DNA from: Verrucomicrobia bacterium IMCC26134
GTDB lineage: Bacteria > Verrucomicrobiota > Verrucomicrobiia > Opitutales > Opitutaceae
Assembly: GCA_000972765.1 (NCBI GenBank)
Contig: CP011265.1
Span: 620,001-684,000 of the forward strand
DNA: 64,000 bases
Direction of reading: 5' to 3'
Numbering within the stretch: position 1 is the stretch's first letter; every line of letters begins with the position of its first letter. Both the position numbers and the translations under genes were made by a program. Below, piece after piece: positions 44,687 through 55,338 of this stretch. The notes below the pieces were generated by a model. The model ran no database searches. It was not told the origin of the DNA and saw nothing but the letters and a program-made list of their open reading frames with translations.

Positions 44687-44723
44687 TTGAGTATATACTC
44701 AAATACTTGAAATTATGTCAAGT
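44687..44723. promoter_or_regulatory. Palindromic operator between the ArsR gene and the DUF2892-RND operon
   Basis: TTGAGTATATACTCAA at 44687-44702 is a perfect 16-bp palindrome. A second dyad, ACTTGA at 44705-44710 with TCAAGT at 44718-44723, follows at once. It lies in the short divergent gap, where an ArsR/SmtB repressor would control both directions. The palindrome is read directly; binding is inferred. Confidence 0.8.
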
Positions 44724-44741
44724 GTTTGTTTCCTCGCCGCC

Positions 44742-45077
44742 ATGGCCAAAAAGAATCGACCCTTGAGTGATGAAGCCCTCGTGCTGGTGGCGCGACGATT
44801 TGCGGTTTTGGCCGAGCCCATGCGACTGCGTTTGTTGCAGTCGTTGATGGCAGGTGAAAAATCAGTAGGAGTCGTGGCGGAAGGGACCGGCGGCACGCCG
44901 GCAAATATATCGCGTCATCTACAGACGTTGGCGGAGGCAGGAATGGTGAGCCGGCGCAAGGAGGGCTTGCAGGTGTTTTACGCTATCGCAGACCCGACGA
45001 TCTTTGAATTGTGCGAACTGGTGTGCGGGAGCATCGACCAGCAGATGCAGTCGCGGGCGAAAGCGTTCCAAAAGTAA
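44742..45077 (+). CDS. ArsR/SmtB-family transcriptional regulator
   Basis: A 111-residue winged-helix repressor. RRFAVLAEPMRLRLLQSLMAGEKSV and NISRHLQTLAEAGMVSRRKEGLQVFY (each read in parts) are the ArsR fold; the recognition helix lacks the CxC metal site of ArsR proper. A C-terminal LCELVCGS offers a Cys pair that could sense thiols or metals. An ATG at 44715 is in frame, but it lies inside the second dyad, so 44742 (MAKKNRPLSDEALVL) is preferred. It is divergent from the DUF2892-adaptor-RND genes, its likely targets. Confidence 0.87.
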   Translation: MAKKNRPLSDEALVLVARRFAVLAEPMRLRLLQSLMAGEKSVGVVAEGTGGTPANISRHLQTLAEAGMVSRRKEGLQVFYAIADPTIFELCELVCGSIDQQMQSRAKAFQK

Positions 45078-47708: not shown

Positions 47709-48713
47709 GTGATCGCTTCCGTTGCATTCCGGAATTTCAAGGCTCTGCGTTCCGCGCAGCTTGTGCTCGCGCCGTTCAATCTCATCATTGGACCCAACGG
47801 TTCGGGGAAAACCAGTCTCATCCAGGCACTGCTCCGTCTGCGGTCGCTTGCCAGACTGCCCCTGCGGGAGCCTGTTCCCGAGGGCGAGCGCCTGCCCGAG
47901 GCCGCCGAGATCAGTTTTCGTTTCAACCCGCCGCATGACGGCTTGGAGGCTGTGCTGGCCTGCGTGGACGAGGCGAGCTGCGACCTGCTGCAGTTAACGC
48001 CATTACCGCGCGGAGAAGGAGTCGATGACTGGCCTGGACTGCGCACCCGGCTGCTGACTCTGCGCAGCTACGTGCTTGATCATCTTGCCATTACCTCGAC
48101 CGGTGCGGGCCGGTCGAATGGCAATAAACTGGCCTCGCATGGAGGTAATCTGGCGGCCGTGCTCGCTGTTCGCCGCGAACTTGCGCCCGGTTACTACACC
48201 GCCTTGTGCGAGGAGCTGACGGAGCTTTTCCCGGAGTTTTCGGATTTGGTTTTATTGCCTGAACTCGGTTCGTTCGGTCTGCGACTGCGAGATGGCGGTG
48301 ACATCGTGCCGGCGGATAATCTTTCCCAGGGCACGCTTTATACCCTCGCCCTTCTTGCTATCGCCCACGATCCGACGCCTCCCGCCATCGTATGCATCGA
48401 GGAACTTGATCGAGGGCTGCATCCGCGTCTGTTGCGGGGGGTGCGGGATGTCTTATACCGCTTAAGCTATCCGTCCGATTATGGGCATGACCGTGCTCCG
48501 GTGCAGGTGATCGCAACCACGCATTCACCGCTGATGCTCGATCTCTTCCGTGATCATCCCGAGGAAGTCGTGATCGCCGACAAGGTCGGTCGTGCCGCGA
48601 CCTTTGCCCGTCTCGCCGATCGTGCCGACCTTGCCGATTTACTGACCGAGGGTGCCAGTCTCGGCGACCTCTGGTATTCCGGCATTCTGGGCGGCGTGCC
48701 CGAGGAGCCATGA
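47709..48713 (+). CDS. AAA family (ABC/OLD-like) ATPase of a two-gene cassette
   Basis: A 334-residue ATPase of the RecF/OLD-like AAA_21 kind. Walker A is GPNGSGKTS (28-36), the ABC-type signature LSQGTLYTLALLA, Walker B with two Glu in IVCIEELDRGLHPRLL, and the switch His in VIATTHSPLMLD. There is no TOPRIM domain on this chain, unlike full OLD proteins. It starts with GTG and overlaps the next gene by 4 bases (ATGA), so the two products are very likely partners. Similar ATPase plus small partner pairs occur in antiphage or genome-maintenance modules, but the role here is inferred. Confidence 0.82.
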   Translation: MIASVAFRNFKALRSAQLVLAPFNLIIGPNGSGKTSLIQALLRLRSLARLPLREPVPEGERLPEAAEISFRFNPPHDGLEAVLACVDEASCDLLQLTPLPRGEGVDDWPGLRTRLLTLRSYVLDHLAITSTGAGRSNGNKLASHGGNLAAVLAVRRELAPGYYTALCEELTELFPEFSDLVLLPELGSFGLRLRDGGDIVPADNLSQGTLYTLALLAIAHDPTPPAIVCIEELDRGLHPRLLRGVRDVLYRLSYPSDYGHDRAPVQVIATTHSPLMLDLFRDHPEEVVIADKVGRAATFARLADRADLADLLTEGASLGDLWYSGILGGVPEEP

Positions 48714-49375
48714 GCTCTCCGGCCTCGCGTCCTCTGCGTCTCGCCCTGCTCGGCGAGTCCATGGTGGACGAGGCTGCTTTATCCATTCTGGTCGAGGCGG
48801 TGCTGGGGGCGCCCTTTGTTCGGGTGCAGCCCAACCTCCGTGCACGCGGCTGGCCGTCGGTGTTGCAAATCCTGCCAGCCATCGCCCGCCATCTCCATTT
48901 CAATACCAATGCCGACGGTCTTATCGTGCTTGTGGATGCCGACGATACCGAGATTCACACCGCCGCGCACGAAGCGCCCGGTTATTTTCACCCGCGCTGC
49001 CGTATGTGCCAACTGCGCAGCTCCTTTCGCCGCGCCACTAAAACGCTTCCACCCGCGCATGGACGCACTCATATGCTTCGCGCCATCGGCCTGGCGGTGC
49101 CGGCGGCCGAGGCTTGGTATCTGTGCGGTCTCGACGAGTCGGTGGGCGAGGCCGCCTGGCTCGCGGCGCGCGAGGAGGGCCGGACGCCGTATACGCGCAG
49201 GGAACTCAAAGCCCGTGTCTATGGCACCGAGAGACCCAATCTTCCTCAAGCGGTCGCTTTTGCCACTGCCGCCGCCCGTCGCCACGCCGTTGATTTGCGG
49301 AGGCTCGAGTATGATTTTCCCGGTTTCGCTTGCCTCGCAGATGACCTGCGTAATTGGGGTAAAGTTAACGGTTGA
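48710..49375 (+). CDS. DUF4276/TOPRIM-like partner of the AAA ATPase, unknown function
   Basis: A 221-residue protein. The N-terminus LALLGESMVDEAALSILVEA has the spaced Glu/Asp-Glu pattern of TOPRIM- or DUF4276-like proteins, and GLIVLVDADDTEIH supplies the Asp-x-Asp acidic motif after a hydrophobic strand. A Cys pair sits in RCRMCQLR, and AAEAWYLCGLD follows, a region seen in DUF4276-like proteins. This suggests a metal-dependent nuclease or phosphoryl-transfer fold, but the match is by eye. It overlaps the ATPase by 4 bases. Its stop codon lies inside the palindrome before marR. Confidence 0.55.
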   Translation: MSSPASRPLRLALLGESMVDEAALSILVEAVLGAPFVRVQPNLRARGWPSVLQILPAIARHLHFNTNADGLIVLVDADDTEIHTAAHEAPGYFHPRCRMCQLRSSFRRATKTLPPAHGRTHMLRAIGLAVPAAEAWYLCGLDESVGEAAWLAAREEGRTPYTRRELKARVYGTERPNLPQAVAFATAAARRHAVDLRRLEYDFPGFACLADDLRNWGKVNG

Positions 49376-53116: not shown

Positions 53117-54355
53117 ATGAACGACGCTGGTTTTTTTACCCCCTCCTACGCGCCCGTTTGGCTGGCCTGGCCGTTGACTGTAATCGCACGCCTGCTTTAT
53201 CGGGTGCGGACGCGCGGCGCGGAGCGCATTCCCGAAGGCGGGGCCTTGTTGCTCGCCAATCACCTTTCGTATGTGGACGTAGTTGCGCTGCAACTGGCCT
53301 GCCCGCGCCCGATCCGCTTCGTCGGGCACGAGGGGTTGACGCGGGCGCACTGGTTATTCCGGCTGGCGTTCAAGTTGACCGGCACCATCCCGGTATCGCC
53401 GATGAACGCACTGGAAACGATGCGGCGTGTGACGGCGGCGCTAAAGGCGGGTGAACTTGTCCTCTTGTTTCCCGAGGGCGCAATCTCCCGCACCGGACAG
53501 TTGATGCGCTTGGAGCGCGGGTTTGAGTTGATGGCGCGCAAGGCTGGGGTGCCGGTGGTGCCGGTGGCGCACGACGGCTTCTGGGGCTCGGTGTTCTCGT
53601 TTTCGGACAACAAATATCTTTTCAAATATCCGCGGATGCGGCGCACGCACGTTTTTGTCGTCTGGGGCGAGCCGATTCCTCCCGCGGAAACGACTACGGT
53701 GGCGGTGCGGCGGGCCTTGTTGGACCTTGGATCAGTGGCGTTCGCGGAGCGGCCTCAGCTCAGGCGCCATATCGGACGCGAGATGGTGCGGAGATTATCG
53801 CGGCGTCCCGCCCGACTGGAGTATGTGGATCGCACGGCGGGACGGCGCCCCATACGGGCGGCGGATTTGCTCGCCGCCTCTGCCGCTCTCTCGCGCCATT
53901 TGAGGCGCACGATAACCTCGCGCCGGGTCGGCGTCGTGCTGCCGCCGGGAGCGGGCGCGACTATTGTTAATCTCGCGTTGGTTTGCGCCGGAAAGGTGCC
54001 GGTAAACCTCAACTTCACCGCAGGACGCGCGGCGCTGGAGGCCAGCCTTTGTATCGGTGAGATTGACACCGTCATCACCGCGAACGCGATGAAGGATAAG
54101 CTGCCCAATTTTCCCTGGCCGGAACGCACGCTTGATTTGAAGACCGAGATGGTGGCTTTGGGCGGGACGCGCGCGCTGTTGCCTTGGTTTGTCGCGGCCT
54201 GGGTGTTGCCGAATCAGTGGACGGCCGGGCTGCTCGGGCTCCCGCGTTACGGCGACCACGAGGAGGCGGGGGTGATTTTTACCAGCGGTAGCTCTGGCGA
54301 ACCCAAGGGCGTCGTGCTGAGCCATCGCTCTCCATCCTGCCCGAATCTGCGGTGA
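53117..54355 (+). CDS. 1-acylglycerophosphate-type acyltransferase fused to truncated AMP-ligase N-terminus (split gene, part 1)
   Basis: A 412-residue product. Residues about 20-215 are a PlsC-type acyltransferase with NHLSYVDVVAL (HX4D) and FPEGAISRTG. Residues about 250-412 begin an adenylate-forming ligase domain, reaching the P-loop TSGSSGEPKGVVLSHR, then shift out of frame and stop. In relatives such as Aas the ligase domain continues. The next frame resumes as SILPESAVMLACLPIFHSFG, but about 12 residues are missing. So this is the 5' part of a broken Aas-like gene, or a naturally split one, since the halves overlap as GTGA. Confidence 0.8.
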   Translation: MNDAGFFTPSYAPVWLAWPLTVIARLLYRVRTRGAERIPEGGALLLANHLSYVDVVALQLACPRPIRFVGHEGLTRAHWLFRLAFKLTGTIPVSPMNALETMRRVTAALKAGELVLLFPEGAISRTGQLMRLERGFELMARKAGVPVVPVAHDGFWGSVFSFSDNKYLFKYPRMRRTHVFVVWGEPIPPAETTTVAVRRALLDLGSVAFAERPQLRRHIGREMVRRLSRRPARLEYVDRTAGRRPIRAADLLAASAALSRHLRRTITSRRVGVVLPPGAGATIVNLALVCAGKVPVNLNFTAGRAALEASLCIGEIDTVITANAMKDKLPNFPWPERTLDLKTEMVALGGTRALLPWFVAAWVLPNQWTAGLLGLPRYGDHEEAGVIFTSGSSGEPKGVVLSHRSPSCPNLR

Positions 54356-55338
54356 TGCTGGCCTGTCTGCCGATTTTTCACAGTTTCGGATTCACTGTCA
54401 CGATGTGGTATCCACTCCTGCGCGGGTGTCGCGTCGTGAGTGTGCCCAGCCCGCTGGAGACCGGTAAGATCGTTGATGCGATCCGAGAGGAAGGGGTGAC
54501 GGTATTTGTCGGTGCCCCGACTTTTCTACGTCCCGTGGTGAGGAAAACGAAACCGGGTGACCTGCGTTCGTTGGAAGTGGTGGTTTCCGGCGCGGAGAAA
54601 TTGCCGATGGATCTCTACGAAACCTTTCTGGAGAAATACCACATCGAGATCATGCAGGGCTATGGCCTGACTGAAACATCACCGGTTTCCAACGTAAACC
54701 AGCCCGATCCGGCCATACCCACGCCAACAGCCTCCCGCCAGCCGGGGCGTCGGCGCGGCACGGTTGGCCGTATGATGCCCGGCATGACGGCGCGTATTCT
54801 AAATCCTGAAACAAAGGCGGAGCAGGCAGTCGGCGAGCCGGGTATCGTGGCATTTCGTGGCGATAATATTTTCTCTGGCTACCTGAAGGATCCGCAGAAG
54901 ACCGCCGAGGCGTTTCACGATGGCTGGTTTGTGACGGGAGACCTTGGACGTTTTGACGACGATGGTTTTCTTACCATCGAAGGTCGTTTGTCACGGTTCT
55001 CAAAAATCGGCGGCGAGATGGTGCCTCATGGCACGGTAGAGGCGCGTATTGTCGAGGCTTTCGGCTGTGACGAGACCGACGGTTACGCTGCAGTGGTCAT
55101 GGGCGTGCCGGACGCGACCAAGGGTGAACAGCTTGTTCTCTTGTCCACGCGGGACGAAATCACCCCGGAGGCGGTGCGCGAAAAACTCACCGAACTCGGC
55201 TTGCCCAATCTCTGGATCCCCAAGGTGGTAAAGCGAGTGAACAAGATTCCCGTGCTCGGCACCGGAAAACTCGATCTCAAAGCGGCGAAAGAAATGGCCC
55301 TTGCCGTGTCTACGGAAACCAAAGTCTTAGCCCCGTAG
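54352..55338 (+). CDS. AMP-dependent ligase C-terminal part (split gene, part 2)
   Basis: A 328-residue frame holding the rest of the acyl-ACP/acyl-CoA synthetase domain: ACLPIFHSFGFTVTMW, VVSGAEKLP, the QGYGLTETSPV motif, GWFVTGDLGRFDDDG (adenylate-binding Asp) and the C-terminal catalytic Lys in LGTGKLDLKAAKE. It lacks the P-loop motif, which is in the preceding frame, so alone it should not be active. An Aas-like enzyme would reactivate fatty acids and re-acylate lysophospholipids. The GTG start at 54352 overlaps the previous stop. Confidence 0.75.
   Translation: MMLACLPIFHSFGFTVTMWYPLLRGCRVVSVPSPLETGKIVDAIREEGVTVFVGAPTFLRPVVRKTKPGDLRSLEVVVSGAEKLPMDLYETFLEKYHIEIMQGYGLTETSPVSNVNQPDPAIPTPTASRQPGRRRGTVGRMMPGMTARILNPETKAEQAVGEPGIVAFRGDNIFSGYLKDPQKTAEAFHDGWFVTGDLGRFDDDGFLTIEGRLSRFSKIGGEMVPHGTVEARIVEAFGCDETDGYAAVVMGVPDATKGEQLVLLSTRDEITPEAVREKLTELGLPNLWIPKVVKRVNKIPVLGTGKLDLKAAKEMALAVSTETKVLAP

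What the first reader, a model, noticed from the sequence alone, without database searches (positions are those of the whole stretch)
47709..49375. AAA/OLD-like ATPase coupled to a TOPRIM/DUF4276-like protein
Two genes overlap by ATGA and form a closed pair. The first has Walker A, ABC-type signature, double-Glu Walker B and switch His. The second has a spaced acidic N-terminal motif and Asp-x-Asp after a hydrophobic strand, plus a CxxC. An ABC-type ATPase with a separate TOPRIM-like partner recalls PARIS- or OLD-type antiphage modules (established families), though the sequences here are not a clear match. It lies in a stretch with broken genes and repeats. No phage or integrase gene is close, so a housekeeping role is also possible.
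Basis: partly seen in the sequence, partly recalled or inferred. Interest (0 to 1): 0.62.

Follow-up and report, generated by a model that had tools for sequence, protein, structure and literature searches.

The report
Inherited split ATPase and nuclease pair
Two overlapping genes encode an ATP-driven switch protein and a probable partner nuclease of a kind usually met in phage-defence systems, but in this bacterial family the pair is passed down from parent to offspring, mostly at one fixed place in the chromosome, so it may serve the cell itself.

Summary
Window 47709-48713 encodes an SMC/Rad50/OLD-type ABC ATPase head (AAA_21 E 4.7e-31; fold Z 16-18 to PtuA, SMC, Rad50, AriA, OLD). Window 48710-49375, overlapping by ATGA, encodes a TOPRIM-like protein: E16, D20, G47, D76, D78 and E134, counterparts of TOPRIM and class 2 OLD metal-site residues, are unchanged in 93 of 93 distinct sequences, as is a His/Cys cluster.

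The defence-island reading is not supported. 78 of 120 family genomes hold both genes, always adjacent; two hold one, explained by a contig end and by a different pair. The same downstream gene follows in 59 of 79 carriers. Genera cluster in the pair's tree. Seven of 20 non-carrier loci show the flanks joined directly, without remnants. No clear relative of gene 2 was found elsewhere in a phylum sample, on plasmids, phages or viral contigs.

Best reading: a split OLD-like, ATPase-gated nuclease, vertically inherited and sometimes lost whole; cell-serving (like archaeal Cran1) or resident immunity. Nuclease activity, substrate and trigger are inferred. New variant of a known kind.

The parts
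47709..48713 (+). Gene 1: 334-aa ABC-type ATPase (SMC/Rad50/OLD/PtuA-like head), GTG start
   Evidence: AAA_21 E 4.7e-31; PADLOC HEC-01A 2.8e-39; PDB profile search best TsOLD 3.3e-9; AF2 pLDDT 88.3, fold Z 16-18
47790..47813 (+). Walker A GPNGSGKT (residues 28-35)
   Evidence: K34 in 89/89 distinct sequences
48321..48335 (+). ABC signature LSQGT (residues 205-209)
   Evidence: S206 88/89, G208 89/89
48399..48404 (+). Walker B double acidic E231-E232
   Evidence: acidic in 89/89 (E231 88 E + 1 D; E232 84 E + 5 D)
48522..48524 (+). switch histidine H272
   Evidence: 87/89 (2 Gln)
48710..49375 (+). Gene 2: 221-aa TOPRIM-like predicted nuclease, start overlaps gene 1 stop by ATGA
   Evidence: AF2 pLDDT 87.7; VIA rows 2 and 3 are OLD C-terminal regions 6njv/6njw, Z 7.7/7.3, under the trust limit of 8; active-site-type residues conserved
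48755..48769 (+). TOPRIM glutamate E16 and, four residues on, D20 (counterparts by order and spacing of E400 and E404 of BpOLD)
   Evidence: each 93/93; BpOLD ligands from passages of PMC6755086
48848..48850 (+). candidate TOPRIM glycine G47
   Evidence: 93/93
48935..48943 (+). DxD motif D76, D78
   Evidence: each 93/93
48956..49009 (+). His/Cys cluster H83, H87, H94, C97, C100 (possible zinc site, inferred)
   Evidence: each 93/93
49109..49111 (+). E134 in V-P-A-x-E-[AG]-W (counterpart by spacing of E508 of BpOLD)
   Evidence: 93/93
53117..55338 (+). Neighbour conserved near the pair: acyltransferase + AMP-ligase gene, here in two ORFs (53117-54355 and 54352-55338)
   Evidence: downstream within 8 kb, same strand, in 59 of 79 carriers; Pfam domains of an unbroken relative, L030

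Best explanation
A split OLD-like module. Gene 1 is an ABC-type ATPase head that is expected to dimerise on ATP and hold gene 2, a TOPRIM-like metal-dependent nuclease whose site is E16/D20/D76/D78/E134; ATP binding, hydrolysis or an engaged ligand would gate the nuclease. It was fixed early in this family (taken to be Opitutaceae), mostly at one chromosomal site, is inherited vertically, and is sometimes lost whole. The likeliest use is a cell-resident nucleic-acid processing or surveillance function (comparable to archaeal Cran1) rather than an exchangeable phage-defence cassette. Shown: gene coupling, fold class of gene 1, conservation, purifying selection, synteny, genus-level vertical descent, clean empty sites. 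Inferred: complex formation, nuclease activity, substrate, trigger, cellular role, zinc binding, and that absences are losses rather than repeated gains.
For: Both genes in 78 of 120 family genomes, in all 78 on one contig and strand, ATPase first, -13 to 269 bp apart between matched stretches; the two singletons are G416 (partner cut at a contig end) and G462 (ATPase hit beside a DUF4276 gene, a different pair). One copy each apart from genes split into fragments and one second, distant ATPase hit in G443. Acyltransferase/AMP-ligase gene downstream in 59 of 79 carriers. 15 of 16 genera with several rows need one change on the pair's tree (13 of 14 in the table, two more drawn as clades; g6 and g14 with low support, g223 needs two; 59 of 78 carriers used). 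Distances follow RsmH (39 genomes: rho 0.35 and 0.45; 1 and 0 of 2000 permutations as high). Seven of 20 non-carrier loci with direct flank-to-flank joins, 15-182 bp, and nothing better than E 0.31 to either protein in any of the 20. dN/dS 0.04-0.17. Active-site-type residues 93/93, counterparts of BpOLD and RNase M5 residues. No relative of gene 2 on plasmids, phages or IMG/VR. Of 10 flanking window proteins only two regulators match PADLOC models, through generic winged-helix stretches. By contrast DUF4276 matches reach E<=0.001 in only 8 of 120 genomes, 4 over the cut-off. Precedent: Cran1, an order-wide OLD that is apparently not antiviral (abstract and passages).
Against: Not universal: a third of the genomes lack it, with 14 minimal and 7 forced changes on a weak single-gene tree, so it is dispensable, which also suits immunity. 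All PADLOC relatives are defence models, though that library holds only such. The TOPRIM call rests on motifs plus a middling Z 7.7; Foldseek found no match at E<=0.001; no Thr506 or Lys562 counterpart was shown. Distance correlations are moderate; on the 18 genomes with the ligase gene held they are weaker (ATPase-RsmH 0.10, 433 of 2000 as high; ATPase-ligase 0.29, 97 of 2000; partner-ligase 0.26, 33 of 2000; RsmH-ligase itself 0.39, 2 of 2000). In 2 of 61 genomes with pair and ligase on one contig the arrangement differs. No experiment.
Confidence: 0.5

Rival explanations
1. A resident antiphage system (HEC-01/PARIS-like) that happens to be vertically maintained: gene 1 senses infection and releases gene 2 to cut DNA or tRNA and stop growth.
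For: Best profile relatives are HEC-01A, AriA and PDC models, with mad3 further down, for gene 1 and HEC-01B, mad4 and PDC 'B' models for gene-2 relatives, all 9 models touched being of such partner genes by name. Absence as a clean unit suits a costly, dispensable defence.
Against: Mostly fixed site, genus clades, no mobile element seen, no clear defence neighbours, no phage or plasmid copies of gene 2; the gene-2 match to HEC-01B is only 0.057 for this protein and 2e-4 at best.
Confidence: 0.35
2. A regulatory or lipid/envelope-linked pair: conserved near an acyltransferase/AMP-ligase gene and an AcrB-TolC-type efflux set, gene 2 having lost catalysis.
For: Operon-like run of eight ORFs with gaps of -4 to 36 bp and conserved neighbours.
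Against: The catalytic-type residues are 93/93; genes between pair and ligase vary and the ligase gene persists without the pair in non-carriers.
Confidence: 0.1
3. A RecF/RecR-type repair substitute.
For: RecF-like ABC head (NCBIfam recF 4e-8 over residues 2-42) plus TOPRIM-like, CxxC-bearing partner recall RecF/RecR (likeness to RecR recalled).
Against: A separate full-length RecF is present (G000:C1:2068711-2069709, E 7e-92) and 104 of 120 family genomes have a RecF over the cut-off, carriers and non-carriers among them. RecR was not searched.
Confidence: 0.05

Closest known systems
HEC-01 (PADLOC candidate defence system, HEC-01A/HEC-01B)
   Same: Two-gene ATPase plus partner; gene 1 hits HEC-01A at 2.8e-39; 14 of 37 alignment members of gene 2 hit HEC-01B PDLC04202, best 2e-4
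   Different: Gene 2 itself hits only at 0.057; family-wide, syntenic, vertical here. Whether HEC-01B shares the His/Cys cluster was not tested. No paper on HEC-01 itself was found in the held library; one paper mentions HEC-06 and the origin of the HEC set (PMC12988326, passages)
PARIS (AriA/AriB, class 4 OLD)
   Same: ATPase and TOPRIM on adjacent genes (PMC12796447 and PMC10568477, passages); AriA profile 3.4e-30; AriA-AriB structure 8v46 Z 16.2 for gene 1
   Different: No AriB model or DUF4435 match at E<=1 (that AriB is DUF4435 is recalled); not seen on mobile elements
OLD family nucleases, classes 1-3 (TsOLD, BpOLD/XccOLD, GajA)
   Same: TsOLD is the best PDB profile hit of gene 1 (3.3e-9); gene-2 residues parallel five BpOLD metal-site residues in order and spacing
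   Different: Two separate chains instead of one; His/Cys cluster (its absence from OLD proteins was not tested)
Cran1 (class 5 OLD, Sulfolobales)
   Same: Lineage-wide, conserved neighbourhood, apparently not antiviral (abstract and passages)
   Different: Single chain, archaeal, could not be deleted; the present pair is absent from a third of its family
DUF4276 (PF14103) partners of AAA ATPases
   Same: Similar order of motifs (Glu near N-terminus, DxD or DSED, E-x-W) seen by eye
   Different: No Pfam match at E<=1; profile-profile comparison failed (only 7 DUF4276 rows); DUF4276 matches are sparse in the family (8 of 120)

Membership tests
SMC/Rad50/OLD-type ABC ATPase | Walker A, LSGQ-like signature, Walker B acidic pair, switch His, ABC head fold | tested here: met
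TOPRIM nuclease | Invariant Glu, Gly after strand 2, DxD | tested here: met
   E16, G47, D76/D78 each 93/93, strands from the model; motif definition from passages of PMC6755086
TOPRIM nuclease | TOPRIM fold | tested here: inconclusive
   Confident alpha/beta model; OLD C-terminal regions second and third of the VIA rows, Z 7.7/7.3, below the limit of 8; no Foldseek match at E<=0.001
OLD nuclease active site (class 2) | Six side chains E400, E404, D455, D457, T506, E508 | tested here: inconclusive
   Five counterparts by order and spacing (E16, D20 - an Asp for Glu -, D76, D78, E134); no Thr counterpart shown; placement in space not examined
PARIS (AriAB) | AriB (DUF4435) partner | tested here: not met
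   No AriB model or DUF4435 match at E<=1
HEC-01 | Both HEC-01A and HEC-01B | tested here: inconclusive
   A: 2.8e-39; B: 0.057 for this protein, 2e-4 best relative; the tool gives no PADLOC cut-offs
DUF4276 (PF14103) | Match to the Pfam model | tested here: not met
   No DUF4276 match at E<=1 in the 37 alignment members, P0002 included; none in G000; hhalign probability 0.3%
Mobile antiphage defence cassette | Patchy, mobile, defence-island context | tested here: not met
   absence from a third of genomes is the one patchy trait
Antiphage system | Protection from phage | not testable with these tools
   Needs an experiment

The most novel reading that the evidence does not exclude
A bacterial counterpart of Cran1: a two-chain OLD-type ATPase-nuclease, with an invariant His/Cys (zinc?) element in its TOPRIM partner, that left the defence world and works in chromosome or RNA maintenance in one bacterial family.
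Probability: 0.35. Interest if true: 0.62.

Novelty: new variant of a known kind. Interest (0 to 1): 0.42.

Why it matters
OLD-type ATPase-nuclease pairs are mostly filed as phage defence. A family-wide, vertically inherited pair under purifying selection, mostly at one site, with natural carriers and clean natural nulls at that site, is a good test case for whether such modules also serve the cell, and a warning that profile hits to defence libraries do not by themselves show a defence role.

Tried and rejected
DUF4276 membership by profile-profile comparison: failed, although the motif order looks alike by eye. Significant structural match of gene 2: none by Foldseek in PDB or BFVD at E<=0.001; VIA gave only Z 7.7, shared by an uncharacterised Pyrococcus protein (2p62) and an OLD C-terminal region, with unrelated folds such as lumazine synthases close behind at 6-7. 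Sequence profile of gene 2 against PDB: nothing at E<=10. Mobile or viral relatives of gene 2: none (gene 1 was not searched there). Relatives outside the family: in the phylum sample of 387 genomes the 27 clear matches are all of the own genus or family; three further matches of about 36 residues at E about 0.008 in another family I take for chance. RecF substitution: a true RecF is present. Identity to the window's genes alone was a weak test of vertical descent (64 genomes, rho 0.39, p 0.001, and 0.24, p 0.055), so trees and synteny were used. Literature: searches for DUF4276 with AAA and TOPRIM, HEC-01, MADS mad3/mad4, DUF4276, OLD/PARIS terms, Hma-embedded candidates, Opitutaceae with defence/OLD terms, and Opitutus with TOPRIM showed nothing on this pair in the listings seen. 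tRNA scan of the window found none.

Full report
WHAT IS THERE. Window 47709-48713 (334 aa, GTG start) and 48710-49375 (221 aa) overlap by ATGA. They sit in an operon-like run of eight ORFs on the + strand, with gaps of -4 to 36 bp: M50 peptidase, ATPase, partner, MarR, DUF2339, two ORFs of a split acyltransferase/AMP ligase, amidohydrolase-like (Pfam for the M50, ATPase, MarR and DUF2339 genes; ligase domains from an unbroken relative; 'amidohydrolase-like' is my reading). The genome is one contig of 4.0 Mb. The 27 named related loci are titled Opitutaceae, Opitutus, Opitutales, Opitutae, Opitutia or Verrucomicrobia/Verrucomicrobiota, so I take the family to be Opitutaceae.

GENE 1. AAA_21 at 4.7e-31, HEC-01A at 2.8e-39 and AriA at 3.4e-30. 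The profile's best PDB chain is TsOLD, 3.3e-9. The model (pLDDT 88.3) matches retron/Septu PtuA, SMC, Rad50, AriA and OLD heads at Z about 16-18. At 334 aa it is an ABC head with no room for the long coiled coil of SMC/Rad50.

GENE 2. The protein has no Pfam, NCBIfam or PHROG match at E<=1; its relatives give only scattered unrelated Pfam hits, best 0.017. Among the 37 members of the alignment (itself included), nine PADLOC models are touched, all named as second genes: HEC-01B (five models; PDLC04202 in 14 of 37, best 2e-4; PDLC04205 in 11), PDC-M38B and mad4 (3 each), PDC-M31B and PDC-M25B (1 each). Of ten members looked at singly seven had a hit; the stretches mostly cover the N-terminal Glu motif and/or the DxD. 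The model is confident (pLDDT 87.7), but structural matches are middling: 2p62 Z 7.7, XccOLD C-terminal region Z 7.7 and 7.3, with no Foldseek match at E<=0.001. The residue evidence is stronger. Passages of PMC6755086 define TOPRIM by an invariant Glu, a Gly after strand 2 and DxD, and give BpOLD ligands E400, E404, D455, D457, T506, E508; RNase M5 D31 and E110 align with E404 and E508. Gene 2 has E16, D20 (+4, as in BpOLD, but Asp), G47, D76, D78 (D76 60 after E16; 55 in BpOLD) and E134 (58 after D76; 53 in BpOLD). All are unchanged in 93 of 93 distinct sequences. Counterparts of T506 and of K562 were not shown. H83, H87, H94, C97 and C100 are also 93/93; a zinc site is inferred only.

DISTRIBUTION. 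In 120 family genomes gene 1 (E<=1e-20) and gene 2 (E<=1e-5) are each found in 79. 78 have both, in all 78 on one contig and strand in the same order, -13 to 269 bp apart between matched stretches. G416 has only a partner cut by a contig end, and G462 an ATPase hit beside a DUF4276 gene (L109). In a phylum sample of 387 genomes the partner profile finds 27 clear matches, all in the own genus or family. The marker RsmH is found in 118 of 120, so absence is mostly real. DUF4276 matches reach E<=0.001 in 8 of 120 and the cut-off in 4, the sparse pattern expected of exchangeable modules. The plasmid, phage and IMG/VR collections gave no relative of gene 2.

SYNTENY AND DESCENT. The acyltransferase/AMP-ligase gene lies downstream, same strand, within 8 kb in 59 of 79 carriers; 2 have it elsewhere on the same contig (G388 far away, G422 convergent), 11 on another contig, 7 have no match at E<=1e-120. 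In the 68 loci (48 carriers, 20 non-carriers) an AcrB-type gene was seen in 23, a TolC-type gene in 25 and a gene of about 1000 aa without Pfam match in 31 (Pfam on one member each). In six carrier loci (L044, L045, L048, L053, L179, L187) the 1000-aa gene stands directly before the ATPase and the ligase gene directly after the partner (in L044 with a 90-aa opposite ORF between). Among the 20 non-carrier loci seven (L221, L225, L228, L231, L233, L234, L235) have the 1000-aa gene directly before the ligase gene, 15-182 bp apart; two more (L222, L224) have only a small unsupported ORF between; the other eleven have other genes there or other flanks. Nothing better than E 0.31 to either protein was found in any of the 20. 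In the tree of both proteins (59 rows) 13 of the 14 true genera listed need one change, and the two unlisted ones (g213, g226) are drawn as clades at 100; g6 and g14 have low support and g223 needs two changes (the group 'gx' there is a leftover label, not a genus). Distances correlate with RsmH over 39 genomes (ATPase rho 0.35, 1 of 2000 permutations as high; partner 0.45, 0 of 2000) and with each other (0.33, 0 of 2000), but on an 18-genome subset the ATPase-RsmH value is 0.10 (433 of 2000). On an RsmH tree of 90 genomes presence/absence needs 14 changes (7 forced by starred branches; shuffled mean 24, 0 of 500 as low): early gain with several losses is the simplest story, but the tree is weak, root and gains are not settled, and some absences may be assembly gaps. 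dN/dS is 0.04-0.17 (dS above 1 in three of ten comparisons, so rough).

DEFENCE CONTEXT. Of ten flanking window proteins only two regulators match PADLOC models at E<=0.001: Csa3, CasR, CARF and PDC-M05A models for 44715-45077, CARF models for the MarR gene. I read these as generic winged-helix matches and do not count them as defence genes. A separate full-length RecF is present, so the pair is no RecF replacement.

HOW IT MOST LIKELY WORKS. Gene 1 dimerises on ATP and carries gene 2, whose two-metal site cuts nucleic acid when released or aligned by the ATPase. This is by analogy with OLD, Gabija and PARIS (passages); none of it was tested. The vertical, mostly fixed-site pattern makes a cell-serving or resident-surveillance role likelier than an exchangeable cassette. 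Cran1 (PMC12796447, abstract and passages) is the precedent for an OLD protein that is conserved in an order and apparently not antiviral. Unlike Cran1, this pair is dispensable in its family. Clean absence also fits a costly immunity, so I keep that rival at 0.35.

NOVELTY. A new variant of a known kind: split OLD-like, related to HEC-01 by gene 1 and probably by gene 2, but with an invariant His/Cys element and a vertical, syntenic history. The library searches listed under Tried and rejected showed no description of this pair.

Noticed in passing
window 53117-55338: The acyltransferase/AMP-ligase gene is in two ORFs (53117-54355, 54352-55338) where most relatives have one ORF; the break lies inside the AMP-ligase part. 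Whether it is real or a sequencing error is not known.
   Followed up: partly
L045:3805-6915 and 30 further loci: A conserved gene of about 1000 aa upstream of the pair's site, directly or with genes between; the one member scanned has no Pfam match at E<=1e-5.
   Followed up: no
L109:853-1425, L117:1501-1914: DUF4276 genes occur sparsely in the same family (8 of 120 genomes at E<=0.001, 4 over the cut-off); these two lie next to ATPases related to gene 1 at 42 and 40% identity.
   Followed up: partly
genomes G388 and G422 (L189, L192): The pair lies far from the ligase gene (G388) or faces it convergently with a 27-bp gap between matches (G422), showing local rearrangement.
   Followed up: no
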